NCBI GenBank assembly: GCA_024687845.1 | Contig: JAILEL010000262.1 | Coordinates: 1 to 38,837, forward strand | Origin: Eubacterium sp. | GTDB taxonomy: Bacteria; Bacillota_A; Clostridia; Lachnospirales; Lachnospiraceae | Direction: 5' to 3' | Length of the DNA: 38,837 nucleotides | Part shown: positions 1,797 through 17,000 of the stretch, one piece after another | Layout: every line of letters starts with the position of its first letter | How positions within the stretch are numbered: the first letter of the stretch is position 1 | Notes under the pieces: model-generated | Told to the model about the DNA's origin: nothing | The model's input: the letters and a program-made list of their open reading frames with translations, nothing else | Databases searched by the model: none | Made by a program: the position numbers and the translations under genes

Positions 1797-2801
1797 TTAA
1801 CAGATTCGTGGAAGAAGTTCTCCTGTCGGACGTGAGAGCATTGTCTTTGCTCCTACTGCTGTTGTCACTACAACTTTGCCCTTGTTCTCTTCTGTTACTT
1901 CTCCGATTATGCAGGCTCCTTCTGAGTTAGGACATGTCTTTAATACTTCAACTATTTTATCAGCTTCTGATGCAGGTGCAAAAATAACAAGTCTTCCTTC
2001 GCATGCAAGATAAAGTGGCTCAAGTCCGAGCATTGAGCAGACTCCTTTTACACCATCAGCCACAGGTACCGCTTCTCCGTCAAGTGCGATTCCAACGTTG
2101 CTCTGTCCTGCTATTTCATAAAGCACTGTTCCCACTCCACCACGAGTGGCATCTCTTATTACATGAACATCCTTTGTAGCCTCAAGAATCTTCTGTACAT
2201 TGATGGAAAGTGGCGCACAGTCACTTGTAATATCTGCATCTATTTTGAAATCATTTCTCGCGAGTAAGATAGTGCATCCATGACGTCCTATATCACCTGT
2301 TACTATAATCTTATCTCCCGGCTTTGCAAGCGCACCTGATGTTTTTACTCCATCCATAATACGTCCGATTCCGGTTGTTGTAATAAATATTTTATCAACC
2401 TGTCCTTTTCCCGCAACCTTTGTATCTCCAGCAACCATCTGTACTCCGGCCTCTGCTGCAGTCTTCTCCATAGCAGCCGCAATCTCCTCAAGCTTATCCA
2501 TTGGAAATCCTTCCTCAATAATAAAGCTGCAGGTCAGATACTGAGGCACTGCTCCCATACACGCTATATCATTTACTGTTCCACAGATTGAAAGCTTACC
2601 AATATTCCCCCCTGGGAACTCGTATGGTGAAACTATAAATCCATCTGTTGACATAGCAAGCTTCCCTGCCGGAATATCCAGAACTGCGGCATCATCCGCC
2701 GTAAGATTTGGATTTGAAAAATGTTGTTTAAAAATTTTGTCTATAAGTTCTGAGGTCTGTACCCCACCAGAACCATGAGCTAATGTAACTACTGATTCCA
2801 T
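1797..2801 (-). CDS. hypE: HypE, carbamoyl-dehydratase of the Fe(CN)2CO pathway
   Basis: A 334-residue HypE of normal length. HypE takes a carbamoyl group from HypF onto its C-terminal cysteine and dehydrates it with ATP to a thiocyanate, the cyanide donor for the HypC-HypD iron site. The protein begins with the PurM/SelD-type motif LAHGSGGVQTSELI, has DDAAVLD at about residues 36-42, and ends exactly in PRIC, so the essential terminal cysteine (C334) is present. It is the last gene of the operon, 85 nt after hypD. A hairpin terminator follows. No truncation is seen. Confidence 0.95.
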   Translation of the reverse strand: MESVVTLAHGSGGVQTSELIDKIFKQHFSNPNLTADDAAVLDIPAGKLAMSTDGFIVSPYEFPGGNIGKLSICGTVNDIACMGAVPQYLTCSFIIEEGFPMDKLEEIAAAMEKTAAEAGVQMVAGDTKVAGKGQVDKIFITTTGIGRIMDGVKTSGALAKPGDKIIVTGDIGRHGCTILLARNDFKIDADITSDCAPLSINVQKILEATKDVHVIRDATRGGVGTVLYEIAGQSNVGIALDGEAVPVADGVKGVCSMLGLEPLYLACEGRLVIFAPASEADKIVEVLKTCPNSEGACIIGEVTEENKGKVVVTTAVGAKTMLSRPTGELLPRIC

Positions 2802-2886
2802 ATCATTTCCTCTTTTTTTTGTATTTTATTAAAACTTTCCCATATTGTTACTTTAGAATCACATAAGTAAGGAAAATTTTAATAAT

Positions 2887-3948
2887 TTAAACTTCAATCC
2901 CTATTGTAGGTCCATAATGGTAATATGCTGCGCAGGCTCCTTCATCTGAAACCATACATGCACCTACCGGATGAATCGGTGTGCAGACCTTGCCAAACAT
3001 TGGGCAGTCTGTAGGTTTGCATTTGCCCTGAAGAACCTCAGGACATCTGCAGGCTGGATTTCCTTTTCCTTCTATCTTAGGAATGCTGTATTTTACTCTG
3101 GAATCAAAGTCCGAATATTCTGCACGAAGCTTCATTCCAGACTTTTCTATGATTCCAAGTCCGCGCCACTCACTGTCGCAAGGCTCCATAACCGCATCCA
3201 CCAGCTTCTGAGCTGCTACATTGCCTTCATCCTTTACTACTCTCGGATAGCAGTTAACAAAAAACGGCTTTCCTTCCTTTAGCTTCTGAACAGTCACAGC
3301 CATTGCTGTCATAAGTTCGTTTGCGGTAAAACCAGCAACTACTCCTGACACGCCTTCATTAACCAGCTCCTTGCAGATTGCATTTCCAGTTATTGCATTT
3401 ACATGTCCCGGATATAGAAATGCATCAGCACTTCCCTTCAGCTTTTCATATGCATTTGGCATAGTCTTGTTGGCAGTTAGTATTGAGAAGTTACTAAGTC
3501 CAAGCTTTTTAGCCTTCTTAACTGCAAGACACGCTGATGGTGTTGTTGTCTCGAATCCAACAGCTAGAAATACAACCTGCATTTCCGGATTCTCCTTAGC
3601 CAGCTCCACTGCATCATCAGGTGAATACACTGGACGGACATCTGCACCCTCTGCTCTTGCTCCGGCAAGGCTCATTTTCGTTCCTGGAACCTTTATAAGA
3701 TCGCCAAATGTACATATGATGCATTCCTTTTCTTTTGCAAGGTAAATAGCCTCATCTATATACCCGACTGCTGTAACACATACCGGACATCCTGGACCTG
3801 ATATAAGATCAATTGTCTCTGGAAGAAGACTTCTGATTCCCAGTCTGAATATCTCGTGAGTATGAGTTCCACACACTTCCATGATTCGAACCGGCGGTCC
3901 ATCATAGGACTGTATTATCTCACGAGCATTTTTTATTACATCGTTCAT
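2887..3948 (-). CDS. hypD: HypD, iron-sulfur scaffold for Fe(CN)2CO assembly
   Basis: A 353-residue HypD. With HypC it holds the iron to which CO and two cyanides are attached before transfer to a hydrogenase precursor. Family signatures are intact: MEVCGTHTHEIF (C26 and nearby histidines), GPGCPVCV (C54, C57, redox-active CxxC), FLAVGFETT, and a C-terminal cysteine cluster for the [4Fe-4S] centre (C300, C302, C310, C315, C322). It lies 48 nt after hypC and 85 nt before hypE in the same operon. Together with HypC, E and F it completes the set for the Fe(CN)2CO unit. The nickel-insertion proteins HypA and HypB are absent from the window. Confidence 0.95.
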   Translation of the reverse strand: MNDVIKNAREIIQSYDGPPVRIMEVCGTHTHEIFRLGIRSLLPETIDLISGPGCPVCVTAVGYIDEAIYLAKEKECIICTFGDLIKVPGTKMSLAGARAEGADVRPVYSPDDAVELAKENPEMQVVFLAVGFETTTPSACLAVKKAKKLGLSNFSILTANKTMPNAYEKLKGSADAFLYPGHVNAITGNAICKELVNEGVSGVVAGFTANELMTAMAVTVQKLKEGKPFFVNCYPRVVKDEGNVAAQKLVDAVMEPCDSEWRGLGIIEKSGMKLRAEYSDFDSRVKYSIPKIEGKGNPACRCPEVLQGKCKPTDCPMFGKVCTPIHPVGACMVSDEGACAAYYHYGPTIGIEV

Positions 3949-3996
3949 TTTTTTATCCTTTCATATCAGCGCTTATATGAGCTGAATAAGCTGATC

Positions 3997-4218
3997 TTAT
4001 CTTGCATGAGCTGTAAGTCCGGCCATCACGCCTTCCGTTTCTGTATTATCATCTGCAGTAATCTTAGCAATAGCTACTCCAGCATGAACCATAACATAAT
4101 CGCCCGGTTCAAGATCTTCCAGAAGCTCCGCACTGACATCTCTCTTAGCACCGCTGGCATCAATAACAGCAGTACCATCCTTAACACTAACTACTTTAGC
4201 AGAAAGTCCTACACACAT
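3997..4218 (-). CDS. hypC: HypC, small chaperone for the Fe(CN)2CO unit
   Basis: A 73-residue HypC. ATG 4218 is the right start because it yields the family N-terminus MC, whose C2 becomes the N-terminal iron-binding residue, and because GGAGG and AGGAG sites lie just upstream. The open frame extends further 5' only by running into the preceding gene. The histidine in DYVMVHAG (H45), matching the functionally important HypC histidine, is present. Oddly, the usual proline after MCxxx (MCLAIP-type) is replaced: here it is MCVGLS. It follows the PARG gene by 16 nt and precedes hypD. HypC escorts iron from HypD to a target protein; which protein that is here is open. Confidence 0.9.
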   Translation of the reverse strand: MCVGLSAKVVSVKDGTAVIDASGAKRDVSAELLEDLEPGDYVMVHAGVAIAKITADDNTETEGVMAGLTAHAR

Positions 4219-4234
4219 TCTCCTATCCTCCGTT

Positions 4235-5038
4235 TTATTTATTTTCAAATACACTCCTGAACGTAGTGATATTTCTTCCGTTCTCACTTCCATATATTGC
4301 AAAGCATATTTCGTCAAAGCATTTTCCATATTCTTCTTCAACAATGACTTTCTTAAAATACTGTGCAACGTCTTCAGGTTTGTTACCAAATGCACCGCAG
4401 CCCCAGGCTCCGAGCACTAGTGTCTTATACCCATATTTAACAGCTGCAGTGAGCATTATTCTGATTCTTGTTACAAATGTATTCTCAATCAGCTCAGCTC
4501 CTGCCAGCATAGCCGCTCCATATCTGTTTGGCGCGGGAACTGTCACAACTCCCATTACCACAGGCTGCTCCAGAAAGTTATATTTCTCATCTCTGAATAC
4601 CACCACATTAGGTGATATGAGCATGTAATCCGACTCAACCCTGCTGGCATGAGTATTATTGTATTTGTACATTTCCGATGCTTTCTTTGAATCTATTGAA
4701 GCATAGAGTGTACTGCATCTGCAAAGTGCTTCCTCCTGAGCATTAGCTCCAATCCTAAAGCCGCCCCCCGGGCTGTGAGCATTTGCAAAGTTCATAACAA
4801 GTGGATTATTAAACTGGCGTCCTGCCTGAAATGAATCTGCGTTGATCACGCTTATCTTGCAGTCCGACTTCTTAAATGACGATAGGTCAAGACTGCATAG
4901 CTTCTTTCCCATGTCAGGACTTATTACATATACTTCCTCATAATCTATCTGTGGAAGCAGTATTTCTTTTCCGTTTACACTATATTTCCCATCCTTAGTT
5001 ATCTGAATTGTTTCATTTGCAATTCTAACATTACTCAA
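4235..5038 (-). CDS. Bacterial-type poly(ADP-ribose) glycohydrolase (macrodomain, TIGR02452/PARG family)
   Basis: A 267-residue protein with the PARG signature GGG-x7-QEE: GGGFRIGANAQEE at residues 91-103, where the second Glu is catalytic in characterised PARGs. NPLVMNFANAH precedes it and LVLGAWGCGAFGNKPEDVA follows near residue 210, both typical of the TIGR02452 family. These enzymes cut the ribose-ribose bonds of poly(ADP-ribose) and bind ADP-ribose in a macrodomain. The gene is embedded between hypF (30 nt) and hypC (16 nt), so it is co-transcribed with hydrogenase-type maturation and nitrogenase-like genes, a context I do not know from characterised systems. Its substrate here is unknown. 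Confidence 0.85.
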   Translation of the reverse strand: MSNVRIANETIQITKDGKYSVNGKEILLPQIDYEEVYVISPDMGKKLCSLDLSSFKKSDCKISVINADSFQAGRQFNNPLVMNFANAHSPGGGFRIGANAQEEALCRCSTLYASIDSKKASEMYKYNNTHASRVESDYMLISPNVVVFRDEKYNFLEQPVVMGVVTVPAPNRYGAAMLAGAELIENTFVTRIRIMLTAAVKYGYKTLVLGAWGCGAFGNKPEDVAQYFKKVIVEEEYGKCFDEICFAIYGSENGRNITTFRSVFENK

Positions 5039-5068: not shown

Positions 5069-7516
5069 TTAATTGGAGCCTGAGAAAAGCCCCGCAAGCG
5101 CCTGACCTACACAGATGCCTCCGTCATTCGGCGGTATCAGACTATGTCGCAGTACTCGCAGATTCTTCTCCTCGAGAAGCACCTCTACAAGTCCGAGAAG
5201 TAGTGTATTCTGAAATACCCCGCCCGAAAGTGCTGTTGTTTTTATTCCTGTTTCCTCACTGAATCTAACTGCATTTCCGGCAATCATTTCAGCAAGCTTT
5301 ACATGAAACTCCAGCGCAAGCTTATCTGAAGTCTCTCCATTTAATCTTTCATTTGCAATAAATCTTACAAGACTATTTGTATCCTTTATTTCATAGTTCC
5401 CATATACTTTTGTTTTCACATTTTCATCTAGCCCAAGTATTTCATTATAGTAATCGGTATGATGATTTTTCATTGTATTATGGGAAGTACCTATAACTGT
5501 TTCAGCATATCTCTGTGCTGCGAACATAAGAGAAGTTGCCGCCTCTCCCTCAAATGTTGAGCTTCGTCTAATTCCAAGCACAGCACTTACTGCGTCGAAC
5601 AACCTTCCTGCACTGGTAGAGGTTATGCTGTTAATTCCAGTTCTTGCCATATTCTGCAGGATGCTGTATTCCATTTCAGAGCAAAGACTAAGTCCACTAC
5701 ATATTTCATCCTTACTGAGTATTTTGCTTCCAACAGCATTACTTCCAGCAGCATTACCTTCAGCAGCGTTACCTGCAGATGCTTCTGTATCACCTGCTCC
5801 CATAAAATCTCCAAGAATCGATGCTGCTATCCTCCAGCCTTCCTTGGAAGACATATCTCCGCCGCATTGGATAAATGGAGCTATACTTCCCAGTCTTTCG
5901 AATCCATCCAGTCTGCAGAGAAGGTATTCTCCTCCCCAGATAGTTCCGTCAGTTCCATATCCGGTTCCATCAAAGGAAACCCCTATCACCTCGTCCAGAT
6001 AATTATTCTCTGCCATGCAGGAAAGGATGTGGGCATAGTGATGTTGTATCTTCTTCACCGGAATCCCGAGACTCTCAGCAACAGCAGTTGTATTATACTT
6101 CGGATGCAGGTCGGCTACAACTAGTTTTGGTTCAGCCTCAAGCAGAGTCTTCATTCTTTTAATGGATTCTTCAAGAGCATTTACAGTTCTTATATCTTCC
6201 ATATCACCGACATAAGCAGATGGATATATAAGAGAATCTTTTGCAATTGCAAATGTATTCTTCAGCTCACCACCAATTCCAAGTACATTTCCCTTAATCG
6301 AGTCATCACTTAGCATAATCGGAAGTGGGGCGAAGCCTCTTGAACGTCTTATCATATATGGACTTCCTTTGTAGAAATCCATAACCGTATCATCAGCTCG
6401 GGTTCTTATGGTTCTGTTATTTGAAAGAACTATATCAGTAAAATCCGATATTTCATCTATGGCATCCTCATCTGTCCTGCAGATAGGTGCACCTGATGCA
6501 TTTGCGCTTGTCATGACCAGACAGTCAGAGACTTCATATCCATCATCATAATCAAAAAGCAGCATATGGACAGGTGTATATGGCAGCATTACTCCGACCT
6601 TCGGATTACCCGGTGCAACCGACTCGGCCAGGGATGATTCCGCTTTCTTACTAAGTAGCAGGATAGGCTTCTGAAAGCCTGTGAGGTACTCATGCATTTC
6701 CCTGCATTCTATGTGGCACTCCCTTTTAACAGTGTCTTCATTCTTCATCATCACTGCAAAGGGTTTCATAGGTCTGTTCTTAAGAGCTCTAAGCCTTGCC
6801 ACAGCCTCTTCATTTCGGGCATCACAGCATAAATGGAATCCCCCGATACCCTTTATGGCACAGATTTTTCCCTCTATTATAGCCTTTCTCGCTGCAGAAA
6901 TGGCACTGCGTCCTTTTGTATCTGTTCTTACAAGCTTACCTTCTGATTCATCTTTTATAAGAAGATAAACCTCAGGTCCACAGTCTGGGCAGCAGACTGG
7001 CTGTGCATCATAGCGTCTGGTCTCTGGATGAGTATATTCATATTCGCATTCAGGACACATTTTAAAATCCTTCATGCTCGTTCTTTCTCTGTCATAAGGC
7101 ATCGAATCCAGTATCGTAAGTCTTGGTCCACAGTTTGTGCAGTTGATAAAGGGATGAAGGTAGCGTCTGTTTTTCTTGTCATAAAGCTCCTTCTTACATT
7201 TATCGCAGATAGCAATGTCCGGAGATACAAATATATCTCCCTCGTCTTTCTCGCTCTCTATTATTTCAAATGTATCAAACTTAGGTCTATCTACGAGCTT
7301 GGTGATTATATTCAGAATCATTGCTCTTTCAGGAGGGCTGTACATGAGCGAAGATAAAAGATTGCTGACATTCTCTCCCTGAGCAAATATTTCAACATAG
7401 GAGCCCTTGTTAGATACAGTTCCGGTTATGTTATTTCTCAGGCAGGTACGGCTTACAAATGGTCTGAAACCGACACCCTGAACGATGCCATATACTCTTA
7501 TGTTGGACGTAATCAT
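5069..7516 (-). CDS. hypF: HypF, carbamoyltransferase of the Fe(CN)2CO pathway
   Basis: An 815-residue HypF, a little longer than usual. It converts carbamoyl phosphate and ATP to carbamoyl-adenylate and passes the carbamoyl group to HypE. Domains in order: acylphosphatase-like with VQGVGFRPF (12-20); two zinc fingers (C104/C107/C126/C129 and C154/C157/C176/C179); YrdC-like with KGIGGFHLCCDA; Kae1-like with HHYAHILSCMAE, DGTGYGTDGTIWGGE and LSGGVFQN. A low-complexity insertion (about residues 572-596, repeats of AGNAAEG/AGSNAVG) is coded by roughly 15-nt tandem repeats at 5728-5790. AAGGAG precedes the ATG at 7516. It follows the last nitrogenase-like gene by 25 nt. Confidence 0.95.
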   Translation of the reverse strand: MITSNIRVYGIVQGVGFRPFVSRTCLRNNITGTVSNKGSYVEIFAQGENVSNLLSSLMYSPPERAMILNIITKLVDRPKFDTFEIIESEKDEGDIFVSPDIAICDKCKKELYDKKNRRYLHPFINCTNCGPRLTILDSMPYDRERTSMKDFKMCPECEYEYTHPETRRYDAQPVCCPDCGPEVYLLIKDESEGKLVRTDTKGRSAISAARKAIIEGKICAIKGIGGFHLCCDARNEEAVARLRALKNRPMKPFAVMMKNEDTVKRECHIECREMHEYLTGFQKPILLLSKKAESSLAESVAPGNPKVGVMLPYTPVHMLLFDYDDGYEVSDCLVMTSANASGAPICRTDEDAIDEISDFTDIVLSNNRTIRTRADDTVMDFYKGSPYMIRRSRGFAPLPIMLSDDSIKGNVLGIGGELKNTFAIAKDSLIYPSAYVGDMEDIRTVNALEESIKRMKTLLEAEPKLVVADLHPKYNTTAVAESLGIPVKKIQHHYAHILSCMAENNYLDEVIGVSFDGTGYGTDGTIWGGEYLLCRLDGFERLGSIAPFIQCGGDMSSKEGWRIAASILGDFMGAGDTEASAGNAAEGNAAGSNAVGSKILSKDEICSGLSLCSEMEYSILQNMARTGINSITSTSAGRLFDAVSAVLGIRRSSTFEGEAATSLMFAAQRYAETVIGTSHNTMKNHHTDYYNEILGLDENVKTKVYGNYEIKDTNSLVRFIANERLNGETSDKLALEFHVKLAEMIAGNAVRFSEETGIKTTALSGGVFQNTLLLGLVEVLLEEKNLRVLRHSLIPPNDGGICVGQALAGLFSGSN

Positions 7517-7541: not shown

Positions 7542-8651
7542 CTATGTGTATATCAGCACAGAATCATCATGCATCCTTCCGGACACAGCAAAATGTGGAT
7601 AATCGACGAATCCTCCTCTGTAGCCTGCCGCCTTGAGAAGTGGTTTCATATCAGCGTCTCCTATTATCAGATCGTACGCATTCTGAGATGCAATTTCATA
7701 CAGTTCGTCCTCATTTGACAGCTTGAAATCATGTGCTTCTGAATACTCCGGACTCTGCATGAAAAATGTAGCGCAGTCAATCTTCAGGCTGTCTGACTCA
7801 GCATCAATCCCCTTAAACTGGCGAATAATATCTCTTAGTTCATTTGCTGCAAACTGAGAATGGATAATGAGGATCTTCTTTTCTTCAGGTCTGATCTTAC
7901 TCATTACATCTGACACAACCTCGTCTGGAATAAATGGAAATCCCACCTCATACGGCACTCCGTATTTTTCTTCCATGTATCTGGCCGCCTTAAGCCCCTG
8001 GACACTGACCACAAGATTCTTCTCTAATCTGGGAGCCTGGGCTATCGCCTCGAGCCCTGATCCTACCGAATAGAGAACTATATCTTCATAATCATATTTT
8101 TTGCATAACTGAGTAAGCGGCTCTGCTGTTGAGTAACCAGTTTCCAGAGGAGTAGCGCCAATCACACCAAGCTTTCCCTGAGGTTCTCCATTATCCTTAT
8201 CTTCCGCTCCAGCAAACTCCCTGAACAGCTCATACCAGGTTTCTTCCTCACCCTCATCATAATATCTGGTTCCGGTGCAGCTCACTGTTATGCAGGGCAC
8301 TCCTATCCTTTTCTCTGCCATTTTCTTAATGGCCTTCATATCGGTAGCAATAACTGCAGGAACCGGAGTTCCAACTACTGCCGTAAAATCACATTTCAGA
8401 TATTCCTGGGCACTTGCCATCTTATCAATAAGCTTATCATCACGTCCCATTATCGCATCCATATCACGAAGTCCGGCACTGAAAACAGCACTTTTTTTAG
8501 TAAACCATCTGGGCTCATCAAAACCGCACACATTTCCGGCACAGCCACCTGCATCACATATAACTATAATGCCACCTAGTTCATATAGCACTCCACAGGC
8601 ACCCGACTGATCCGGCGCAAAGGGAGATAAATATTTCAGTAATTTTTTCAT
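7542..8651 (-). CDS. Nitrogenase component 1-like protein (short type), module 2
   Basis: A 369-residue member of the NifD/K/E/N oxidoreductase superfamily. SGACGVLYELGG (C19) and ICDAGGCAGNVCGFDEPRW (C32, C37, C42) resemble the first two P-cluster-ligand regions. Where the third ligand is expected the sequence is VVGTPVPAVIATD, with no cysteine, unlike its paralogue at 10805-12040. It shares the DEPRW motif with that paralogue. It is much shorter than NifD or NifK (about 480-520), with a reduced C-terminus. It is third in the order NifH-like, long subunit, short subunit. Probably it pairs with the product of 8689-9963 and binds an iron-sulfur cluster at the interface. Substrate unknown. Confidence 0.8.
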   Translation of the reverse strand: MKKLLKYLSPFAPDQSGACGVLYELGGIIVICDAGGCAGNVCGFDEPRWFTKKSAVFSAGLRDMDAIMGRDDKLIDKMASAQEYLKCDFTAVVGTPVPAVIATDMKAIKKMAEKRIGVPCITVSCTGTRYYDEGEEETWYELFREFAGAEDKDNGEPQGKLGVIGATPLETGYSTAEPLTQLCKKYDYEDIVLYSVGSGLEAIAQAPRLEKNLVVSVQGLKAARYMEEKYGVPYEVGFPFIPDEVVSDVMSKIRPEEKKILIIHSQFAANELRDIIRQFKGIDAESDSLKIDCATFFMQSPEYSEAHDFKLSNEDELYEIASQNAYDLIIGDADMKPLLKAAGYRGGFVDYPHFAVSGRMHDDSVLIYT

Positions 8652-8669: not shown

Positions 8670-8699
8670 GTTACTATTCACGGATAAATCAGAATACAC
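8670..8699. repeat. Copy of a dispersed intergenic repeat beginning GTTACTATTCACGG
   Basis: Thirty bases starting GTTACTATTCACGG match the left arm of the branched element at 17445-17474 at about 26 of 30 positions. On the coding strand it overlaps the last codons of the upstream nitrogenase-like gene and fills the gap to the next one. Confidence 0.55.
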
Positions 8700-9963
8700 T
8701 CATGAGATTCTCAAAGAGTTTTATCACTCCGTCATAGCCAAAAGGCTGATTATCGTCACACCACTCAATTCCCTTTGCTGTAGGATGATAGTATTTGCAA
8801 TCGGAACCGATATACATGTCTATCTCTTCCTCTTCATAAAACATCATTGTTGGTGAAAGATTTGAATAAACCTTGGTATCAGGACTAAGCTCAGCAAGTC
8901 TTTTCAGGAATTTGGAATTCAGTTCTCCGATTGTTGCGAAGATTTCCTTAACCTCAAAGCCTTCTTCAACAAGCATCAGAGCCATTTCAATGGAATCTCC
9001 ATTCTGAATCTCCCCAACTGAGAATCTGACCTTTCCAACCTTCTGTTTAAATGCATCTATGGTGTCTCTTACCTTCTGATAATACTCTTCATCATTTATT
9101 TTAGCTCCCAGTGCATTTCCAAGCAGCTGATACTGGTTGTGTATCTTATCTATCCTGTACAGTCTGAGAAGTTCAATAAATGGTATTCCAAGTCTGTCCT
9201 GAATATTCTGGGCAGCTGCTCTGGCTTCCGGATTCAGAACCAGATTGAAGTTTGCTTTAGACATTTCCTTATATTCGGCAAATGTTTTCGCTCGCGATAG
9301 TTCTCTTATATTTTTAATTCCTATTGACTTCATCAGTGGGTATAACTCACAGCTGTCAAAAAGCGGAGTAAAAAATCCCATTATATTCATGTCCTGAGGA
9401 ACCTTCTCAGTCTTTTCCAGCAGACTGTAAACAGAAGTTCTGACAGCCGCCATAGGTGGAAGTCTCTTCTCTCTTGTAAGAGCGTACATGTAACAAGCAA
9501 CAGCAGGAACTCCGGTCTTTTCCGTAACCTTCCTGCAGACTCTTTCCATATCCGTTCCCAGAAGAGCATCCACGCAAGTGATACAAATCATGATTGCAGA
9601 TGGCTTTTTTTCAAGAACTGCCAGTACCTCTTCTGCAGCAGCCGGAATCTTAGTAAGATGTCTTCCTGTTACAATGTCCGTATCATCCAGAAGCTGAAAG
9701 AAGAATTTGTTTTTATACTCCGGTGCAAATCTGAAGAGCGAAGTGTTTCTTCCACAGCAGCCGGGAGAAACCAGCAGCATGACTGACTCAGGAACAGCAA
9801 GCCCCGCTCTTTTAACTCCGAAGCCCTTGGCACCCGGAGAATTAAAGTATAGAGTTGCCGGTGAACTGTATATCAGATGGTCGGAGCTTTTCATTTCACG
9901 TGGAAGACCTGAAAGCCCCAGCTCTGCAAGTTGTTTGGTTGTCTGGTAAAATGCATTGTTCAT
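8689..9963 (-). CDS. Nitrogenase component 1-like protein (long type), module 2
   Basis: A 424-residue NifD/K-superfamily protein. LLVSPGCCGRNTSLF (C69, C70) corresponds to the second P-cluster-ligand region (GPxGC in NifD) and MICITCVDALLGTDME (C130) to the third (TTCxxExIGDD in NifK). The first ligand region reads NSPGAKGFG and has no cysteine. Later segments (RFSVGEIQNGDSIEMALMLVEEG, FATIGELN) look like the Rossmann-like domains of the family. It starts 31 nt after the nifH-like gene at 9995-10750, the HDK order of nitrogenase operons. Family-level assignment is firm. The reaction is not known and this is not a canonical nitrogenase, since FeMo-cofactor ligands are not recognisable. Confidence 0.8.
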   Translation of the reverse strand: MNNAFYQTTKQLAELGLSGLPREMKSSDHLIYSSPATLYFNSPGAKGFGVKRAGLAVPESVMLLVSPGCCGRNTSLFRFAPEYKNKFFFQLLDDTDIVTGRHLTKIPAAAEEVLAVLEKKPSAIMICITCVDALLGTDMERVCRKVTEKTGVPAVACYMYALTREKRLPPMAAVRTSVYSLLEKTEKVPQDMNIMGFFTPLFDSCELYPLMKSIGIKNIRELSRAKTFAEYKEMSKANFNLVLNPEARAAAQNIQDRLGIPFIELLRLYRIDKIHNQYQLLGNALGAKINDEEYYQKVRDTIDAFKQKVGKVRFSVGEIQNGDSIEMALMLVEEGFEVKEIFATIGELNSKFLKRLAELSPDTKVYSNLSPTMMFYEEEEIDMYIGSDCKYYHPTAKGIEWCDDNQPFGYDGVIKLFENLMSVF

Positions 9964-9994: not shown

Positions 9995-10750
9995 TCAACT
10001 GTCTTCTTCGATAAGCAGTCTGGCAAGATCAAGAAATCTCTTGCTGACCTCAAGCTCCGGATTGCCTTCTATTACAGTTTTTCCCATATCTTCGTAGTGA
10101 ATAATATCGTTAGTTCTCGGTATGTCTGCAACAATTGGAAGTCCGGCCTTTTCTGCAAACGCACGAACCTTTTCCTCTTCTCCTTCAACGGCGCGTCGGT
10201 TCATAACGATTCCCCTGACCTTAGCATAACTCCTGTCTTCAAAATTCTTTACAGCAGTATTGATGTTATTAGCTGCATACAGAGCCATTTTCTCACCGGA
10301 TGTAACGATGAGAACCTTTTCTGCATATCCCTCTCTGATTGGTGCTGCAAATCCACCGCAGACTACGTCTCCCAAAACATCATAGAGCACAGCATCTGGC
10401 TTAAAGGATTTAAAGAGCTCCAGCTCTTCGAGAAGTGAAAATGTAGTTATTATTCCTCTTCCTGCACATCCTAGTCCCGGTGTAGGCCCCCCTGTTTCTA
10501 TACAGAGAACCCCTCCAAAGCCCTGTTTCGTTATCTGATCCAGCGAAGCAGGTTCCTCGTCATGCTCCCTCATATAATTCATAACAGGCATCACCGGTTC
10601 ACCATTTAGAAGATTTGCAGTTGAATCTGCCTTAGGATCACATCCTATCTGAATAACCCTTTTTCCAAGAGACGCAAGCGCCGCTGACAGATTAGACGTC
10701 ACCGTAGATTTTCCAATTCCGCCCTTACCATATATTGCTATCTTAATCAT
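9995..10750 (-). CDS. NifH-like ATP-dependent reductase (iron protein), module 2
   Basis: A 251-residue NifH/BchL-family iron protein. In this family a dimer carries one [4Fe-4S] cluster and donates electrons with ATP hydrolysis. Walker [10 protein letters not shown] is at 8-16. CDPKADST lies at 37-44. The cluster ligands are C95 in GLGCAGRG and C131 in GDVVCGGF. R98 of GCAGRG matches the arginine that DraT ADP-ribosylates in classical NifH. It is shorter than NifH (about 290), mainly at the C-terminus. It heads the second H-D-K-like module. About half of its residues match the paralogue at 13578-14333 by eye. Its electron acceptor is probably the pair encoded directly downstream. Confidence 0.9.
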
Positions 10751-10804: not shown

Positions 10805-12040
10805 TTATATAAGATCAAATGGAATCTCTCTGTTAATCAGGTTCAATGCTTCTTTATGGAAGCATCTTCCCGAAAATGCATCATGTGGGAGTCGGATAAA
10901 TCGCTTGCCTTTACATATCGGTTTAAAAAGCGGGTCCGCAATTATCACATCTGATTTTCTGATCTCCTGCTCCAGAATATCCTCATCATCACAGGACACA
11001 TCGCCTGATGAATCCTTTGCAGCTATCAGCTGAGTCATGTCTCCGTCTCCGACACTTTCCAGAACCCGGACTCCTACTTCACTTTCAAGAGATAGCGCAG
11101 CTGCAAGTGATGCTGAAAGAACACTCTCTCCGATAACTGCCACCTTGTCTCCCTTTATCCTGTATTTTTCTGCCGAACTTATATTCATTTTGCTACTAAC
11201 TGACAGTTTTAGTTCTTCAAGCAGCTTTTCAGAAAACTTTTTACCATAAGGCGTTCCAACAACAAATGGTATTCCAAAGCTTTCATACAGATATTCTGCA
11301 AGGAGCCTGCCGCCTGATGAAACAACAAGGCTCACATCAGCCAGTCCCAGTCGCCTGATCTCATCAAGGCTGGTATCAACTCCAATCATTGAATTAACTC
11401 TGTATCCTCCAGCTTCAAGCCACTTTCTTATATAAAATGTACTTCCTCGCGACGGCTCATCTTCGTCAGCAGGAAAGCTGCAGGGAAAATCAAGCGGTGT
11501 AAGGCCGAGTACATTAACTGACAGTCCCTTTTTCTCATTTTCTTTGTCATTAGGTACATCCTGTGATCCGCTTGGATTTTGGCCATCTGGGTCGGACGAA
11601 GTGAACTTTTTTGCCAGTTCAAGATATGCCTGCTGAACTCCCGAGATATAACTCTGCATTCCATTTGTTCTTACATTGAAGCTTGGAATACCTGTTTCAT
11701 TTTCTACCTCATAGGCTATGGCATCAAGGTCAACTCCCGTCATAGCTGGAAGCGGTGATGCGCATATTGCAACAAACTCAGGCTTTAGCTCATTTGCGGC
11801 AAGCACCAGATCATGTACGAACCGGTCATCATTACCCATTATGGCATCCTTCTCGGTAAAGCCCGAGATATACATCATACTGTCCTTATCGTACCACCGG
11901 GGTTCATCATGGGTGGTATAAGTCGAATTACAGCCTGACGCATCATGTATGACAGTCATTCCACCATACTCATAAAGTGCCGAACAAAAGCCTGACGTGT
12001 CGGCCGCATATATTGAAATTATCTTCGCAGTCTGATTCAT
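10805..12040 (-). CDS. Nitrogenase component 1-like protein (short type), module 1
   Basis: A 411-residue NifD/K-superfamily protein, clearly paralogous to that at 7542-8651: SGFCSALYEYGG (C19), IHDASGCNSTYTTHDEPRWY (C37) and AICASPLPAMTGVD (C93). Unlike the paralogue it keeps a cysteine at all three positions expected for P-cluster-like ligation. A low-complexity stretch rich in Asp, Asn and Ser lies around residues 150-170. It is the third gene of module 1 and pairs most likely with the 459-residue subunit upstream. The 102-nt gap before it contains a small hairpin (ACGGA-GCAA-TCCGT at about 12058) but no clear promoter. Confidence 0.8.
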   Translation of the reverse strand: MNQTAKIISIYAADTSGFCSALYEYGGMTVIHDASGCNSTYTTHDEPRWYDKDSMMYISGFTEKDAIMGNDDRFVHDLVLAANELKPEFVAICASPLPAMTGVDLDAIAYEVENETGIPSFNVRTNGMQSYISGVQQAYLELAKKFTSSDPDGQNPSGSQDVPNDKENEKKGLSVNVLGLTPLDFPCSFPADEDEPSRGSTFYIRKWLEAGGYRVNSMIGVDTSLDEIRRLGLADVSLVVSSGGRLLAEYLYESFGIPFVVGTPYGKKFSEKLLEELKLSVSSKMNISSAEKYRIKGDKVAVIGESVLSASLAAALSLESEVGVRVLESVGDGDMTQLIAAKDSSGDVSCDDEDILEQEIRKSDVIIADPLFKPICKGKRFIRLPHDAFSGRCFHKEALNLINREIPFDLI

Positions 12041-13577: not shown

Positions 13578-14333
13578 TTAGTTGTCAGCAAAGTCTGACA
13601 CTACTCGGTCAGCTAAGGCGAGAAGTTTCTGACACACATCACTTTCCGGAAAAAGCTCCACAACGGTTTTTCCGGCAGTCTCAGCCTTCTCAAAGAGCTG
13701 GCTTCTAGGAATAACCGCAGCTACCTCTGTATTAAAATCCGCAGCCAGTGTAGCAGCATTTTCTTCCTCATGCTCAACACCGCGGCAGTTCAAAATGATT
13801 CCGCCCAGCTTTGCATAGTCTCTCTTCTTGAAGTTCTCAACGGCCATTGCAATATTTGCAGCGGCATAGATTGACATTTTCTCTCCAGAAGTAACTATAT
13901 AAACCTTATCTGCATAGCCCTTACGCATAGGCATTGTAAATCCACCGCACACAACATCCCCCAGAACATCATATACAACCACATCTGGTTTGTATGTCTC
14001 ATAAGCTCCCTTAGCTTCGAGGGATTCGAGAGCATTTATGATTCCTCTGCCGGCACAGCCCAGTCCTGGAACCGGACCACCAGCCTCTACACAAAGAACC
14101 CCAGCCGAGCTCTGCTTTACCATATCTTCAAGTGTAAAAGGCTTTCCGCTCCTTACCAGATCAAGAACAGTGGTCATCTCCTCCTTCGGTCTTAGAAGAG
14201 AAGTCGAATCTGCCTTTGGATCACAGCCAATCTGCATAACCGTAAGCCCCCGTGCAGCCATCGCCGCACTCAGATTTGAAGAAAGAGTAGATTTACCAAT
14301 CCCACCCTTCCCATATATTGCAAATTTAATCAT
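13578..14333 (-). CDS. NifH-like ATP-dependent reductase (iron protein), module 1
   Basis: A 251-residue NifH-family iron protein. Walker [10 protein letters not shown] is at 8-16, CDPKADST at 37-44, cluster cysteines C93 (GLGCAGRG) and C129 (GDVVCGGF), and R96 at the classical ADP-ribosylation position. It is the first nitrogenase-like gene of the operon, directly after the TM1266-family gene. Having a second, diverged NifH in the same transcript suggests that each one serves its own D/K-like pair, as in NifHDK versus NifEN-type assembly, though NifEN shares NifH. The C-terminus is short compared with NifH. Confidence 0.9.
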
Positions 14334-14380
14334 GATATTTTTCCTTTTTATATTTCAACATATCTATATTAGAATCCCTA

Positions 14381-14629
14381 TTAATCCTCTGGAGAATACA
14401 CTGTCTTGGTCGTAACTCCATCTATTCGTCCAATCTTTCCGGCAAGTGTATTAATAATATCCTGCCTTGCATCTATGGCAATACTAATAATACTGATATT
14501 TTTCTTCTGATATGGTATTCCCATTCTTCCGATTATGTATTTGCCATATTCATGAAGTACATTATTTATTTCGTTTGCCGCTTCTGTATTTTTAACTATT
14601 ATTGCAATCACAGCTGCTCTTGTATCCAT
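14381..14629 (-). CDS. TM1266-family (iron-only hydrogenase system putative regulator) protein
   Basis: An 82-residue ACT-like/ferredoxin-fold protein: TRAAVIAIIVKNTEAANEIN, then HEYGKYIIGRMGIPY and SIISIAIDARQDIINTLAGKIGRI. This matches the small NikR-C/ACT-like TM1266 family that is routinely found beside HydE, HydF and HydG. Start ATG 14629 is chosen because GAGGGG lies 7 nt upstream; the adjacent ATG at 14632 has only 4 nt. Members lack the ribbon-helix-helix DNA-binding part, so a ligand-sensing or chaperone role is as likely as transcriptional control. It sits 47 nt before the nifH-like gene and 60 nt after hydE. Confidence 0.8.
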   Translation of the reverse strand: MDTRAAVIAIIVKNTEAANEINNVLHEYGKYIIGRMGIPYQKKNISIISIAIDARQDIINTLAGKIGRIDGVTTKTVYSPED

Positions 14630-14672
14630 CATCCATCCCCTCAATTTTGGTTTCATTTTTTGATTATCCGTA

Positions 14673-14688
14673 GTTACTATCCGTGATA
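14673..14688. repeat. Diverged copy of the GTTACTATTCACGG repeat
   Basis: GTTACTATCCGTGATA lies in the gap between the hydE stop and the TM1266-family start. It is a weaker match than the copies at 8670 and 17445. Confidence 0.3.
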
Positions 14689-14689
14689 C

Positions 14690-15757
14690 TTATGATAGAT
14701 AATCTCCCCTGGTTATCACAACTTTGTATCCTATACTTTCCATCCGCCGCTCTATGCACCCACGACATTCAGACGAGGTGTCTCCAGTACAGATTTTGTT
14801 ATCATATAACATATATTTATCCCTGACCTGAACCGGCGACAGATTCGGCATTATTACATTTGCCCCAGCAAGGATTCCCTGCTCACGACCATTTGGTTTT
14901 ATAGTTCCAAGTGCAGTAGTTGCCGGAAGCAGAACCTTCGGAAGCATCAGCCTGCATAAGCTGATCATAAAAAGAGTAGTCTCATAGGAGCCCTTCGGTT
15001 CATTTTTAAATGGCGTATCTGAATGTGGGAGAAATGGACCAAGTCCGATCATTTCCGGTTTCAGCTTCTCCATAAGCAGCATATCATCTGCCAGGCATTC
15101 GCTGGTCTGTCCAGGCGAACCAATCATCACTCCACAGCCCGTCTGATATCCAAGTTTTTTCAGATCCTCCAGACACCTGATGCGGTTTTTCCAGGACATA
15201 TTCTCAGGATGAAGCTTTCCATAATGCTCTTCATTTGCCGTCTCATGTCTAAGAAGATATCTATCCGCACCTGCTTCTCGATAAGCCTTATACTCCTCAT
15301 AAGACTTTTCACCAAGCGAAAGTGTAACTGCGCAGTCCGGATATTTCTCCTTCAGCTTACTGACAATCCCGCATATCATATCCGTCGTATAAAAGGGATC
15401 CTCGCCACTCTGAAGCACAAACGTCCTGAAGCCGTACATATATCCACTTTCACAGCAGCTTAGAATATCCTCCACACTCAGCCTGTATCTCTCAAGCTTA
15501 GTATTCCCAGCACGAAGACCACAGTAGTAGCAGTTTCTATTACAGATATTAGAAAACTCAACAATGCCTCTTATAAAAACATCCTTACCATAGATTTTAT
15601 CCGCCAGAGTTCTCGCCCTGCTCGCTGCATAAATCCTGTTCTCTTCAGTAAAAGAATCAAACAGAGAAGACCACTCCTCGCGAGACAGATGCTCCCCCTT
15701 TTCAATTCTATCTATGAGAAGATTATTCTCTATATTATTATTTGTTTTGTTGTTCAT
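14690..15757 (-). CDS. hydE: HydE, radical SAM [FeFe]-hydrogenase maturase
   Basis: A 355-residue radical SAM protein of the HydE/BioB-like type. RGIVEFSNICNRNCYYCGLRAG carries the CX3CX2C cluster motif (C72, C76, C79). A second CX7CX2C site at the C-terminus (C323, C331, C334) matches the accessory cluster site known in some HydE proteins. GVMIGSPGQT and GLGPFLPHSDTPF are HydE-like barrel motifs. In [FeFe]-hydrogenase maturation HydE acts on the Fe(CO)2(CN)(cysteine) synthon made by HydG to build the diiron subcluster. HydG is not encoded in this window. It starts 7 nt after the hydF stop, so the two are translationally close. Confidence 0.92.
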   Translation of the reverse strand: MNNKTNNNIENNLLIDRIEKGEHLSREEWSSLFDSFTEENRIYAASRARTLADKIYGKDVFIRGIVEFSNICNRNCYYCGLRAGNTKLERYRLSVEDILSCCESGYMYGFRTFVLQSGEDPFYTTDMICGIVSKLKEKYPDCAVTLSLGEKSYEEYKAYREAGADRYLLRHETANEEHYGKLHPENMSWKNRIRCLEDLKKLGYQTGCGVMIGSPGQTSECLADDMLLMEKLKPEMIGLGPFLPHSDTPFKNEPKGSYETTLFMISLCRLMLPKVLLPATTALGTIKPNGREQGILAGANVIMPNLSPVQVRDKYMLYDNKICTGDTSSECRGCIERRMESIGYKVVITRGDYLS

Positions 15758-15764
15758 ATCATTA

Positions 15765-17000
15765 CTACAACTCCTTATAAAGATCCGGAAGTATCTCCAC
15801 GCTTCTTTTCAGTATCCCATTCATGTAAGCTATTGCGACTCCATAATTTGTAAATGGAATTCCAACGTCCTCAGCGCATTTCATTCTATATATCATTTCT
15901 CTTGAACTCAGCATGCATCCGCCACAATGGATTATCAGGCTGAACGTAGAGAGGTCATCCGGGAATTCATTTCCTGATGACGTAATTATCTGCAGCTTCT
16001 TTCCTGTCCTTTTCGCCAGAAGCTTCGGAAGCTTTACTGTTCCAATATCTCCACATTGTCTATGGTGGGTACAGCCCTCACTTATTAATATCTTGTCTCC
16101 GTCCTTTAGGCTGTCGATTGCTTTGGCTCCGGGAACTGCCGTATTCAGGAAGCCTTTATATCTCGCCATAAGAATTGAGAACGAAGTAAGCTTGATATCC
16201 TCCGGAACTATGTCCTTTACTATCTTAAAGGCCTGGCTATCCGTTATTACAAGGTCTGGTTTTATTCCGCCACTCGTCATCCTGTCCAGAAGCTCTTCCA
16301 GCTCAGTTTCCCTCGTTGTGATGGCAAATGCACCAACATCCAGAATGTCTCTCAGTGCCTGCTGCTGCGGAAGAATTAGTCTTCCTTTCGGAGCTGATTC
16401 GTCTATCGGAATTACAAGCACGATGGTCTGTCCCTTACTGATCACATCACCCACAAGTCGCACTGGGTTGTCAGATGAAGGTGAAAGACTTCCTATCTTC
16501 TCTTTCAACTCCTCGATATTGGTTCCTTCAGTTGCACTGACATACATATAGTCTATTTTATGATCAGATGAATCCTTTTCCTCAGATTGTTCCATCTTGC
16601 TGCCAACAAGATCCACCTTATTCTTAACAACAATAAAAGGAATATCCTTTTCCTTAAAAATCTGAATTATTTCCCACTCAGATTCATCCATTTCTCTTGT
16701 TGCATCTGTTACCAGAATCGCTATATCTGTCTTGTTCAGAATCTGACGGGTTCTCTTTACTCTCAGTTCTCCCAGCTCACCGCTGTCATCAAATCCAGGA
16801 GTATCTGTTATCAGAACCGGTCCCAGAGGAAGCAGCTCCATGGCTTTATTAACAGGATCCGTCGTTGTTCCCAGGGTATTTGACACTACAGAAATCTGCT
16901 GATTGGTTATTTTATTTACAAGGCTGGACTTGCCACAATTTCGTTTTCCAAAAAAGCTTATGCGAAGTCGTTCACCCGAAGGTGTATCATTTAAACTCAT
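15765..17000 (-). CDS. hydF: HydF, GTPase scaffold of [FeFe]-hydrogenase maturation
   Basis: A 411-residue HydF. The GTPase domain shows GKRNCGKSS (18-26), GTTTDPV (44-50), DTPG (66-69) and NKVD (127-130). The C-terminal iron-sulfur domain has EGCTHHRQCGDIG (C310) and HCGGCM (C359, C362), the three conserved cluster cysteines. HydF holds the diiron precursor and transfers it to apo-hydrogenase. ATG 17000 is preferred because GGAGG lies 7 nt upstream; the in-frame ATG two codons earlier is too close to that site. It is the first gene of the fifteen-gene operon and is preceded by a long structured leader. Confidence 0.95.
   Translation of the reverse strand: MSLNDTPSGERLRISFFGKRNCGKSSLVNKITNQQISVVSNTLGTTTDPVNKAMELLPLGPVLITDTPGFDDSGELGELRVKRTRQILNKTDIAILVTDATREMDESEWEIIQIFKEKDIPFIVVKNKVDLVGSKMEQSEEKDSSDHKIDYMYVSATEGTNIEELKEKIGSLSPSSDNPVRLVGDVISKGQTIVLVIPIDESAPKGRLILPQQQALRDILDVGAFAITTRETELEELLDRMTSGGIKPDLVITDSQAFKIVKDIVPEDIKLTSFSILMARYKGFLNTAVPGAKAIDSLKDGDKILISEGCTHHRQCGDIGTVKLPKLLAKRTGKKLQIITSSGNEFPDDLSTFSLIIHCGGCMLSSREMIYRMKCAEDVGIPFTNYGVAIAYMNGILKRSVEILPDLYKEL

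What the first reader, a model, noticed from the sequence alone, without database searches (positions are those of the whole stretch)
1797..17000. Fifteen-gene operon joining two nitrogenase-like modules to HydEF and HypCDEF
Seen: on one strand, mostly with gaps under 110 nt, lie hydF, hydE, a TM1266 gene, NifH-like, two NifD/K-like, NifH-like, two NifD/K-like, hypF, PARG, hypC, hypD, hypE. Known: HydEF build the [FeFe]-hydrogenase diiron site, HypCDEF build Fe(CN)2CO, and NifH plus NifDK perform ATP-driven low-potential reduction. Inference: the operon makes or uses an organometallic iron cofactor by combining all three chemistries. I know of no characterised system with this combination.
Basis: partly seen in the sequence, partly recalled or inferred. 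Interest (0 to 1): 0.95.

Follow-up and report, generated by a model that had tools for sequence, protein, structure and literature searches.

The report
Hydrogenase cofactor assembly without HydG
Close relatives of this 14-gene operon lie in gut and rumen bacteria that keep [FeFe]-hydrogenases but nearly always lack the usual ligand-making enzyme HydG, and the operon likely builds the hydrogenase's iron–carbon monoxide–cyanide centre by a different route that joins hydrogenase-assembly proteins to nitrogenase-like ones.

Summary
In detail: 14 (not 15) same-strand genes, gaps -14 to 102 nt. Of 42 related loci with enough flank, 37 carry the ten-gene core nH1-nD1-nD2-nH2-nD3-nD4-hypF-C-D-E in the same order.

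The decisive new fact concerns HydG, the known source of the H-cluster's CO and CN-. It passes its cut-off in 1 of 80 genomes carrying a close relative of the operon's nD3. In an even sample of 245 Clostridia it passes in 0 of 7 carriers and 156 of 238 others. [FeFe]-hydrogenase domains pass in 35 of 35 carriers tested, HydE in 7 of 7. Hyp proteins normally serve [NiFe]-hydrogenases, yet 0 of 7 carriers have one, against 36 of 38 other HypD carriers.

Best reading: a HydG-free route to the H-cluster, in which Hyp proteins supply cyanide and carry iron, nitrogenase-like modules drive low-potential steps, and ordinary HydE/HydF finish. A sister form has a FecBCD-type importer where module 2 plus Hyp would be.

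A 2012 paper noted the gene association in one sentence. The window's own genome is not held. The chemistry is inferred.

The parts
15765..17006 (-). hydF, H-cluster scaffold GTPase
   Evidence: TIGR03918 547.4 bits, cut-off 325.55; C312, H360, C361, C364 in 29 of 29 aligned sequences
14690..15757 (-). hydE, radical SAM maturase
   Evidence: TIGR03956 557.8 bits, cut-off 254.6; C72/C76/C79 in 40 of 40
14381..14656 (-). TM1266-family small protein, putative regulator of the [FeFe]-hydrogenase system
   Evidence: TIGR03959 110.1 bits, cut-off 60.8; 38 of 42 full-flank loci
13578..14333 (-). nH1: NifH-like Fe protein of module 1
   Evidence: PF00142 289 bits; C93 and C129 in 60 of 60; fused to nD1 in L131
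12143..13591 (-). nD1: NifD/K-like subunit of module 1 (start codon uncertain; internal ATG 69 nt in)
   Evidence: PF00148 71.6 bits; C82, C86, C146, C478 in 60 of 60; AF2 model pLDDT 82, nitrogenase fold
10805..12040 (-). nD2: NifD/K-like subunit of module 1
   Evidence: PF00148 104.6 bits; C19 59/60, C37 58/60, C93 58/60
9995..10750 (-). nH2: NifH-like Fe protein of module 2
   Evidence: PF00142 298 bits; C95 and C131 in 60 of 60; nH2 rows form their own clade, 100/100
8689..9963 (-). nD3: NifD/K-like subunit of module 2
   Evidence: PF00148 107 bits; C69, C70, C127, C130 in 60 of 60; AF2 model pLDDT 83, best PDB match 4wes_B E 5e-18
7542..8651 (-). nD4: NifD/K-like subunit of module 2
   Evidence: PF00148 71 bits; C32 59/60, C37 and C42 60/60
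5069..7516 (-). hypF, carbamoyltransferase
   Evidence: TIGR00143 720 bits, cut-off 466.1; present in 59 of 60 loci with more than 3.5 kb beyond nD4
4235..5038 (-). PARG-like (TIGR02452) gene, accessory: 4 of 42 full-flank loci
   Evidence: TIGR02452 186.7 bits; counts
3997..4218 (-). hypC chaperone, 73 aa from the internal ATG
   Evidence: TIGR00074 58.6 bits, cut-off 48; C2 and H45 in 59 of 59
2887..3948 (-). hypD
   Evidence: TIGR00075 405.3 bits, cut-off 192.8; C26 in 60 of 60
1797..2801 (-). hypE, with the C-terminal cysteine that carries thiocyanate in known HypE
   Evidence: TIGR02124 416.7 bits, cut-off 251.6; C334 in 53 of 53
1713..1742 (-). terminator-like hairpin after hypE, probable operon end
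   Evidence: 13-pair stem, consensus scan only
17354..17381 (-). promoter-like site upstream of hydF, 11 of 12 matches with TG extension
   Evidence: consensus scan only; 48 such sites found in the region against 39.7 expected

Best explanation
[quoted passage not shown] Shown by the calls, in the window: the gene set, order and signature residues. Shown in relatives (the window's own genome is not held): conservation across families and phyla, the near absence of HydG from carriers, the presence of [FeFe]-hydrogenases there, the absence of [NiFe]-hydrogenases from most of them, and hydA directly upstream of one such operon. Inferred: module 2 (nH2-nD3-nD4), which travels with hypFCDE, acts on HypCD, most simply reducing iron-bound CO2 to CO or the iron itself. 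Module 1 (nH1-nD1-nD2), which stays with hydE in most mapped loci of both forms, turns the resulting Fe-CO/CN unit into something HydE can use. TM1266 would be a regulator.
For: HydG (TIGR03955) passes its cut-off in 0 of 35 carriers and 1 of the other 45, so 1 of 80. Five of the below-cut-off hits were tested and all five are ThiH. Two carriers are closed or single-contig by title and length: R. bicirculans 80/3 and Lachnospiraceae AC2031. In 245 Clostridia drawn evenly from one class, the 7 with a close nD3 (E<1e-150) have HydG in 0 of 7 against 156 of 238 (Fisher p 7e-4). Restricted to the 167 HydE-positive genomes, it is 0 of 7 against 150 of 160, with one borderline genome (G164) counted as negative (status read off the E-values; p 3e-8). 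All 7 have PF02906. PF02906 passes in 35 of 35 carriers (32 at E<1e-60), and the 20 best-scoring hydrogenase loci all have the motif ExMxCxGGCxxGGG. HypD passes in 45 of 245. [NiFe] large subunits: 0 of 7 carriers, 36 of 38 other HypD carriers (p 8e-7). HypB passes in 4 of 35 carriers. In L137 a hydA (group A6) lies 322 nt upstream of the operon on the same strand. Operon HydEs fall among HydEs of HydG genomes in several places of the tree, as if an ordinary HydE changed partners. PMC9431212 (passages): HydE+HydF without HydG gave about 1% activation in vitro, doubled by free CO or CN-. PMC4161419 (passages): iron-bound CO2 is a candidate CO precursor on HypCD, and an Fe(I)-CO form is proposed.
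Against: No biochemistry, and HydG status of the window's own genome is unknown. The H-cluster has one CN per iron whereas HypCD makes Fe(CN)2CO, so a ligand rearrangement or a different Hyp product is needed. Nine sister 'type A' loci keep module 1 (hydE in 6 of 9, TM1266 in 7, hydF in 2) and their genomes lack HydG (0 of 9), but they have no Hyp or module 2 in the locus. HypD is absent from the 3 of these 9 genomes tested. So Hyp is not required in every HydG-less genome and the division of labour is uncertain. One carrier (G573, a 1.7 Mb MAG) also has HydG. Six HydE-positive, HydG-negative genomes of the 245 show neither system (G100, G109, G134, G195, G218, G250; read off), so some absences may be assembly gaps or other routes. 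PMC9431212 (passages) likewise could not find a standard HydG in five acetogenic Clostridium species and offers divergent HydG as one reading. Three of 35 carriers have a [NiFe] large-subunit match, so there Hyp may serve it. The modules' substrates are unknown.
Confidence: 0.75

Rival explanations
1. The operon makes a different organometallic iron cofactor for an unrecognised enzyme, and its link to [FeFe]-hydrogenase is only through shared HydE/HydF-type chemistry.
For: Type A loci show that module 1 with HydE can exist without Hyp nearby. Related nif-FecBCD loci without hyd genes exist (L129, L130, L153). In many loci hydE/hydF are not next to the operon (hydE 29 of 42, hydF 23 of 42).
Against: HydG is missing where the operon or type A is found while [FeFe]-hydrogenases are kept. 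hydA lies directly upstream in L137. No other gene family recurs inside the operon in more than 5 loci.
Confidence: 0.12
2. The nitrogenase-like modules only keep HypCD, HydE or HydF reduced or repair the finished H-cluster; CO and CN come from free cellular pools or a route not seen here.
For: HydE+HydF alone give about 1% activation from trace diatomics in vitro (PMC9431212 passages). The passages of PMC11423573 describe the characterised nitrogenase-like enzymes as NifH-type reductase plus catalytic component.
Against: HypF, HypE, HypC and HypD keep their conserved cysteines with no [NiFe] enzyme found in most carriers, which points to real cyanide and iron-ligand chemistry.
Confidence: 0.12
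3. HydG is merely missed by assembly or profile (a divergent HydG), or replaced by ThiH, and the operon is an add-on.
For: Most carriers are MAGs. ThiH, a HydG relative, is seen in some. One carrier has HydG (G573). PMC9431212 argues for divergent HydG in some acetogens (passages).
Against: 1 of 80 carriers, and 0 of 7 carriers against 150 of 160 other HydE-positive genomes, is too large a gap for assembly loss. Near-complete genomes lack it. Only 13 of 35 carriers have a ThiH-strength hit over 150 bits; in R. bicirculans the only HydG-profile hit coincides with the operon's own HydE.
Confidence: 0.04
4. The Hyp genes serve a [NiFe]-hydrogenase and the cluster is a chance grouping of two maturation systems.
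For: 3 of 35 carriers have a [NiFe] large-subunit match and 4 of 35 have HypB.
Against: 0 of 7 carriers in the even sample have a large subunit against 36 of 38 other HypD carriers. Gene order is kept in 37 of 42 loci, including two Lentisphaerae/Lentisphaeria records.
Confidence: 0.02

Closest known systems
HydE/HydF/HydG pathway of [FeFe]-hydrogenase maturation
   Same: HydE and HydF pass curated cut-offs; client hydrogenases are of a known group (A6 in 3 of 3 tested)
   Different: HydG, the source of CO and CN-, does not pass in 79 of 80 carriers
HypABCDEF pathway of [NiFe]-hydrogenase maturation
   Same: HypC, D, E and F with conserved signature residues
   Different: No HypA/HypB in the operon, HypB in 4 of 35 carriers, usually no [NiFe] enzyme
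NifHEN-like proteins linked to hydrogenase maturation genes in Coprococcus catus GD/7 (Dos Santos et al. 2012, PMC3464626)
   Same: Probably the same system: two closely linked NifHEN-like copies (also in Dorea longicatena), association with hydrogenase maturation proteins, suggested role in metallocluster assembly (passages)
   Different: The passages seen do not mention HydG, HypCDEF without [NiFe], or the importer-containing form joined to hydE; its gene-neighbourhood figure was not seen
Clostridial acetogens without a recognised HydG (PMC9431212)
   Same: HydE and HydF found, HydG not found by known motifs in five species; authors consider unknown ways of ligand supply (passages)
   Different: Passages seen name no nitrogenase-like or Hyp substitute; the word nitrogenase was found only in the reference list
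Other nitrogenase-like reductases: CfbCD, DPOR, methylthio-alkane reductase, isethionate reductase
   Same: NifH-type ATPase plus NifD/K-fold partners; models match this fold
   Different: Scores far below the curated NifH/CfbC/BchL/NifE/BchB cut-offs; gene partners here are hydrogenase maturases
Nitrogenase-like genes with FecBCD-type ABC importers (type C here; nif-like genes with ABC transporters also noted in PMC3464626)
   Same: nH1 clusters with their NifH; same nif-nif-nif-importer layout as type A
   Different: No hyd genes in the four loci mapped; of the six genomes with only such distant hits, four have HydG (two of the six not mapped)

Membership tests
HydEFG [FeFe]-hydrogenase maturation | HydE present | tested here: met
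   557.8 bits against 254.6
HydEFG [FeFe]-hydrogenase maturation | HydF present | tested here: met
   547.4 bits against 325.55
HydEFG [FeFe]-hydrogenase maturation | HydG present in the genome | tested here: not met
   Tested in relatives only: 1 of 80 pass; the window's own genome is not held
HydEFG [FeFe]-hydrogenase maturation | [FeFe]-hydrogenase with H-cluster motif in the genome | tested here: met
   In relatives: 35 of 35, L3 motif in the 20 best loci, 20 of 20
HypABCDEF [NiFe]-hydrogenase maturation | HypC, D, E, F present with signature residues | tested here: met
HypABCDEF [NiFe]-hydrogenase maturation | HypB (HypA not searched in genomes) and a [NiFe] large subunit | tested here: not met
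   In relatives: HypB 4 of 35; large subunit 3 of 35 and 0 of 7 in the even sample
Nitrogenase NifHDK / NifEN | Curated NifH, NifD, NifE scores | tested here: not met
   NifH 301-305 bits against 394; NifE 31-72 against 505; NifD 27-35 where listed against 654
CfbCD (F430 biosynthesis) | Curated CfbC and CfbD scores | tested here: not met
   CfbC 293-301 against 402; CfbD-type TIGR03282 27.9 (nD4 only) against 268
DPOR/COR (chlorophyll biosynthesis) | Curated BchL/BchX and BchB scores | tested here: not met
   BchL 187-207 against 345; BchX 160-200 against 331; BchB 27-37 (nD3, nD2) against 490
Methylthio-alkane reductase | Sequence and partner radical SAM MarB | tested here: inconclusive
   9fmg/9d9u chains match nD1-nD4 weakly (19.8-46.5 bits) and by fold (nD1, nD3); no curated model used, MarB not searched
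H-cluster chemistry | CO/CN infrared bands on operon-matured hydrogenase | not testable with these tools
   needs protein

The most novel reading that the evidence does not exclude
Gut bacteria build the H-cluster with a chimeric Hyp–nitrogenase–Hyd line that has traded places with HydG several times. In the sister form, the Hyp plus module 2 half is replaced by a FecBCD-type importer, which would mean that an organometallic iron–CO/CN unit is taken up from the community like a vitamin and fed by the remaining nitrogenase-like module to HydE.
Probability: 0.2. Interest if true: 0.97.

Novelty: new variant of a known kind. Interest (0 to 1): 0.92.

Why it matters
HydG is the established source of the CO and CN- ligands of [FeFe]-hydrogenases (PMC9431212 passages; PMC3105041 title in search listings). 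A second route in gut and rumen Clostridia would change how H2 production by these bacteria is annotated, and would give a function to a class of NifH-like genes of the kind that distorts nitrogen-fixation surveys of anaerobic and gut samples (PMC8597730 passages; whether those sequences include this operon's was not checked). It would also open the question of where HypCD gets its CO (called debated in PMC4161419, passages), since a dedicated reductase sits next to hypFCDE. It supplies a ready-made cassette to test.

Tried and rejected
Selenocysteine in HydE: TGA codons inside some HydG-profile hits looked suggestive, but in L031 they lie upstream of the hydE start (searches compared). Rejected for that case; the others were not checked one by one.

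ThiH as HydG substitute: five below-cut-off hits were tested and are ThiH, but only 13 of 35 carriers have a hit that strong. Rejected.

[NiFe]-hydrogenase as the Hyp client: rejected as general explanation.

Missing extra gene in the operon: clustering of unassigned ORFs (70 aa or more) in L001-L080 and L131-L137 found none recurring inside it beyond 5 loci: DHFR-like 5, GNAT-like 4 inside, methyltransferase-like 4, and two unnamed families 4 each (names by eye from the letters shown; the list was cut at the 22 largest families).

Placement against named NifEN/BchNB/CfbD/Mar sequences by tree was not done; only internal trees, profile scores and structure matches were used.

Literature: ten searches of the held library and the passages read showed no statement that Hyp or nitrogenase-like proteins replace HydG. 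The library lacks most subscription journals, and only passages or one section of each paper were seen, so this does not prove absence.


Full report
TERMS. 'Carrier' means a genome holding one of the 80 loci L001-L080 found with the nD3 alignment, or one of the 7 genomes of the even sample with nD3 at E<1e-150. R. bicirculans (L038 = G019) is in both sets. The window's own genome is not held, so every genome-wide statement concerns relatives.

THE OBSERVATION. Window 1797-17006 (minus strand) holds 14 genes in transcription order: hydF, hydE, TM1266, nifH-like (nH1), two nifD/K-like (nD1, nD2), nifH-like (nH2), two nifD/K-like (nD3, nD4), hypF, PARG-like, hypC, hypD, hypE. Gaps run from -14 to 102 nt. 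A terminator-like hairpin follows hypE and a promoter-like site lies about 350 nt upstream of hydF (consensus scans only). No hydG over cut-off, hypA, hypB or hydrogenase large subunit turned up among the 30 window proteins scanned.

CONSERVATION. A protein search with nD3 found 2509 relatives among the 7999 candidates scored. A scan of one genome per species with an alignment of 21 members found 451 stretches that encode a relative; the best 80 were kept. By record title they are Lachnospiraceae, Eubacterium, Ruminococcus/Oscillospiraceae, other Clostridia, one Coriobacteriaceae (L071), two Lentisphaerae/Lentisphaeria (L075, L078) and one short Synergistaceae record (L039). In the 42 loci with at least 6.5 kb before and 6.8 kb after nD3, presence is: nD1, nD2, nH2, nD3, nD4, hypC, hypD 42 of 42; nH1 and hypF 41; hypE 39; TM1266 38; hydE 29; hydF 23; PARG 4. 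The ten-gene core nH1 to hypE is collinear on one strand in 37 of 42. The exceptions are L034, L036, L053 (no hypE in view), L057 (no hypF found, hypE moved) and L071 (no nH1, rearranged). Over all 80 loci a hyp gene is in view in 70. Where hydE or hydF is not at the locus (for example L017-L030) I did not locate each copy, but all 7 carriers of the even sample have HydE over cut-off. No other gene was seen to recur inside the operon in more than 5 loci. PARG is therefore accessory.

THE KEY TEST: HYDG. In the standard route HydG supplies the CO and CN- of the H-cluster (PMC9431212 passages). The HydG profile passes its curated cut-off in 0 of 35 carriers and in 1 of the other 45 (G573, a 1.7 Mb MAG). 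As control, in 245 Clostridia drawn evenly from the class, HydG passes in 156. The nD3 alignment picks 7 of the same 245 at E<1e-150 (G019, G245, G156, G093, G235, G170, G193), and by its E-values (9.9e-18 to 6.6e-66) none of these passes: 0 of 7 against 156 of 238, Fisher p 7e-4. Among the 167 genomes with HydE over cut-off, HydG is found in 0 of 7 carriers and 150 of the 160 others, counting the borderline G164 as negative (status read off; p 3e-8). Of the ten others without it, three are the type A genomes described below, six have neither system, and one is G164. All 7 carriers have an [FeFe]-hydrogenase domain (231 of 245 overall at E<=1e-20). Five below-cut-off HydG hits were tested and all are ThiH at 504-524 bits. 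The result is not only a draft artefact: R. bicirculans 80/3 and AC2031 are complete or single-contig by title and contig length. In R. bicirculans the only HydG-profile hit lies where the operon's own HydE lies.

THE CLIENT. The [FeFe]-hydrogenase catalytic domain passes in 35 of 35 carriers, though G009 has only a short fragment (5.7e-9) and G012 and G029 only weaker matches (1.1e-32, 2.8e-25). The 20 best-scoring loci all have the motif ExMxCxGGCxxGGG. Three tested subunits, including that of L137, belong to group A6 by curated model. In L137 (G193) hydA lies 322 nt upstream of nH2 on the same strand. In four Lachnospiraceae loci (L018, L022, L024, L030) a related [FeFe]-hydrogenase-like gene lies 4-5 kb upstream (the L022 copy was scanned, the others match it by BLAST).

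WHY HYP? HypD passes in 45 of 245 Clostridia. Among these, the [NiFe] large subunit is found in 36 of the 38 non-carriers and in 0 of the 7 carriers (for G019, for the other 44; p 8e-7). The two non-carrier exceptions are small genomes (G068, G191). In the 35-carrier set, 3 have a [NiFe] large-subunit match and 4 have HypB (three are the same genomes). So in most carriers HypCDEF has no [NiFe] client in view. The Hyp proteins look intact: HypE keeps its C-terminal cysteine in 53 of 53, HypC C2 and H45 in 59 of 59, HypD C26 in 60 of 60.

THE NITROGENASE-LIKE MODULES. Both Fe proteins keep their P-loop and two cluster cysteines in 60 of 60. nH1 and nD1 are fused into one 698-aa protein in L131, which pairs them. 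In L071, L133, L135-L137 and L151 only nH2 is found in the stretch read, so it may serve both catalytic pairs there. The NifD/K-like proteins score far below curated NifE, BchB and CfbD cut-offs, match NifE/NifD chains only weakly by sequence, and two of them have nitrogenase folds by model (nD3 pLDDT 83, best match 4wes_B, E 5e-18; nD1 pLDDT 82, best 4wes_B, E 3e-15). Conserved cysteines that could hold an iron-sulfur cluster are present in each. A tree of 48 NifH proteins puts nH2 in one clade (100/100) and nH1 with the type A and type C proteins.

A SISTER FORM. Searching nD1 in 295 genomes of one order (12 hits at E<=1e-60), plus the distant hits, gave nine 'type A' loci: L125, L126, L127, L145, L146, L147, L148, L149, L150. 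They carry nH1-nD1-nD2; eight of nine also carry a binding protein, FecCD permease and ABC ATPase (L146 is cut by the contig end). hydE is in the locus in 6 of 9, TM1266 in 7 and hydF in 2 (importer family names from Pfam scans of L126 and L127). None has module 2 or hyp genes in the stretch read. HydG does not pass in any of the 9 genomes. HypD is absent from the 3 genomes tested (G104, G263, G177), and those 3 have PF02906. Conversely no such importer gene (score over 100) was found in L001-L080 (0 of 80) or in the eight other full-operon loci L131, L132, L133, L135, L136, L137, L151, L152 (0 of 8). So module 2 plus Hyp, and the importer, look like alternative suppliers for module 1 plus HydE. 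In L127 the ABC ATPase carries a C-terminal TM1266 domain. Type C loci (L129, L130, L153 with importer; L154 without one in view) have no hyd genes. Of the six genomes with only such distant hits, G107, G183, G214 and G456 have HydG, and G176 and G422 do not (the G183 and G214 neighbourhoods were not mapped).

HYDE IS ORDINARY. In a tree of 50 HydE proteins, operon HydEs sit in several places among HydEs from HydG genomes: G276 (HydG-positive) groups with L071 and L152 at 100/99, and L151 groups with seven HydEs (four from HydG-positive genomes, the borderline G164, and two from genomes with neither system) at 99/97. The window's HydE falls in a 17-row group at 98/89 that holds no HydG-positive row. 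The simplest reading is that HydE has been supplied by HydG or by the new system at different times.

MECHANISM, WITH STEPS MARKED. Known from the families: HypF and HypE turn carbamoyl phosphate into thiocyanate on HypE; HypCD builds Fe(CN)2CO; the CO source is debated, with iron-bound CO2 a candidate and an Fe(I)-CO form seen (PMC4161419 passages); HydE and HydF alone can use trace CO and CN- weakly in vitro (PMC9431212 passages). Inferred: module 2 serves HypCD (hypF present in 59 of 60 loci with room beyond nD4) and reduces CO2 or iron there; module 1 serves HydE (hydE in the locus in 29 of 42 operon loci, and 6 of 9 type A loci); HydF delivers the product. Untested: every substrate, product and the CN-to-CO ratio problem.

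PRIOR WORK. Dos Santos et al. 2012 (PMC3464626; passages) wrote that C. catus GD/7 and D. longicatena encode two closely linked NifHEN-like copies, and that in C. [quoted passage not shown] They also noted nif-like genes with ABC transporters. The passages do not mention HydG or the Hyp/[NiFe] mismatch. PMC9431212 (passages) could not find a standard HydG in five of eight acetogenic Clostridium species and discusses divergent HydG or unknown ways to incorporate ligands. A 2025 study of gut H2 (PMC12578642; section 7 and passages) lists D. longicatena among isolates measured; the text seen gives no value for it by name, and the words HydG, HydE, maturation and maturase do not occur in its main text. 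Ten library searches showed no statement of HydG replacement by Hyp or nitrogenase-like proteins.

VERDICT. The finding is real, widespread and coherent: probably a HydG-free H-cluster pathway. The association was noticed before, the chemistry is unproven, and the division of labour between the two modules is a guess.

Noticed in passing
L125, L126, L127, L145, L147-L150: A sister gene set in which a FecBCD-type importer stands with module 1 where module 2 and hypFCDE stand in the window; HydG does not pass in any of the nine such genomes (with L146).
   Followed up: partly
L127:11266-12321: ABC-transporter ATPase with a TM1266 domain at its C-terminus, linking the putative hydrogenase regulator to the importer.
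   Followed up: no
L131:11709-13805: Natural fusion of the NifH-like and NifD-like proteins of module 1 (698 aa).
   Followed up: yes
L091, L092, L095-L098, L100, L101, L103, L107: Ten of the 20 hydrogenase loci read from carriers have TSCSPGW instead of TSCCPGW in the first H-cluster motif. One paper searched for it held neither string (PMC8924675), so its novelty is open.
   Followed up: partly
window 17158-17185: Terminator-like hairpin between the promoter-like site at 17354-17381 and hydF, possibly a leader attenuator (consensus scan).
   Followed up: no
L018, L022, L024, L030, first 1.5 kb: [FeFe]-hydrogenase-like gene (FeS domain in the L022 copy) followed by a DRTGG-like gene, 4-5 kb upstream of the operon.
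   Followed up: partly
G573 (genome of L015): The only one of 80 carrier genomes with a full HydG; could be contamination or true coexistence.
   Followed up: no
window 4235-5038: PARG-like gene inside the operon in a few relatives only (4 of 42), between hypF and hypC; its role is unclear.
   Followed up: partly
window 17651-38112: Neighbouring genes by family scan: HTH protein, Hsp70-like, a large TPR protein, glycerophosphotransferase-like, Rid and CvfB-like proteins, phage-lysozyme-like protein, solute-binding protein, Imm33-domain protein.
   Followed up: no
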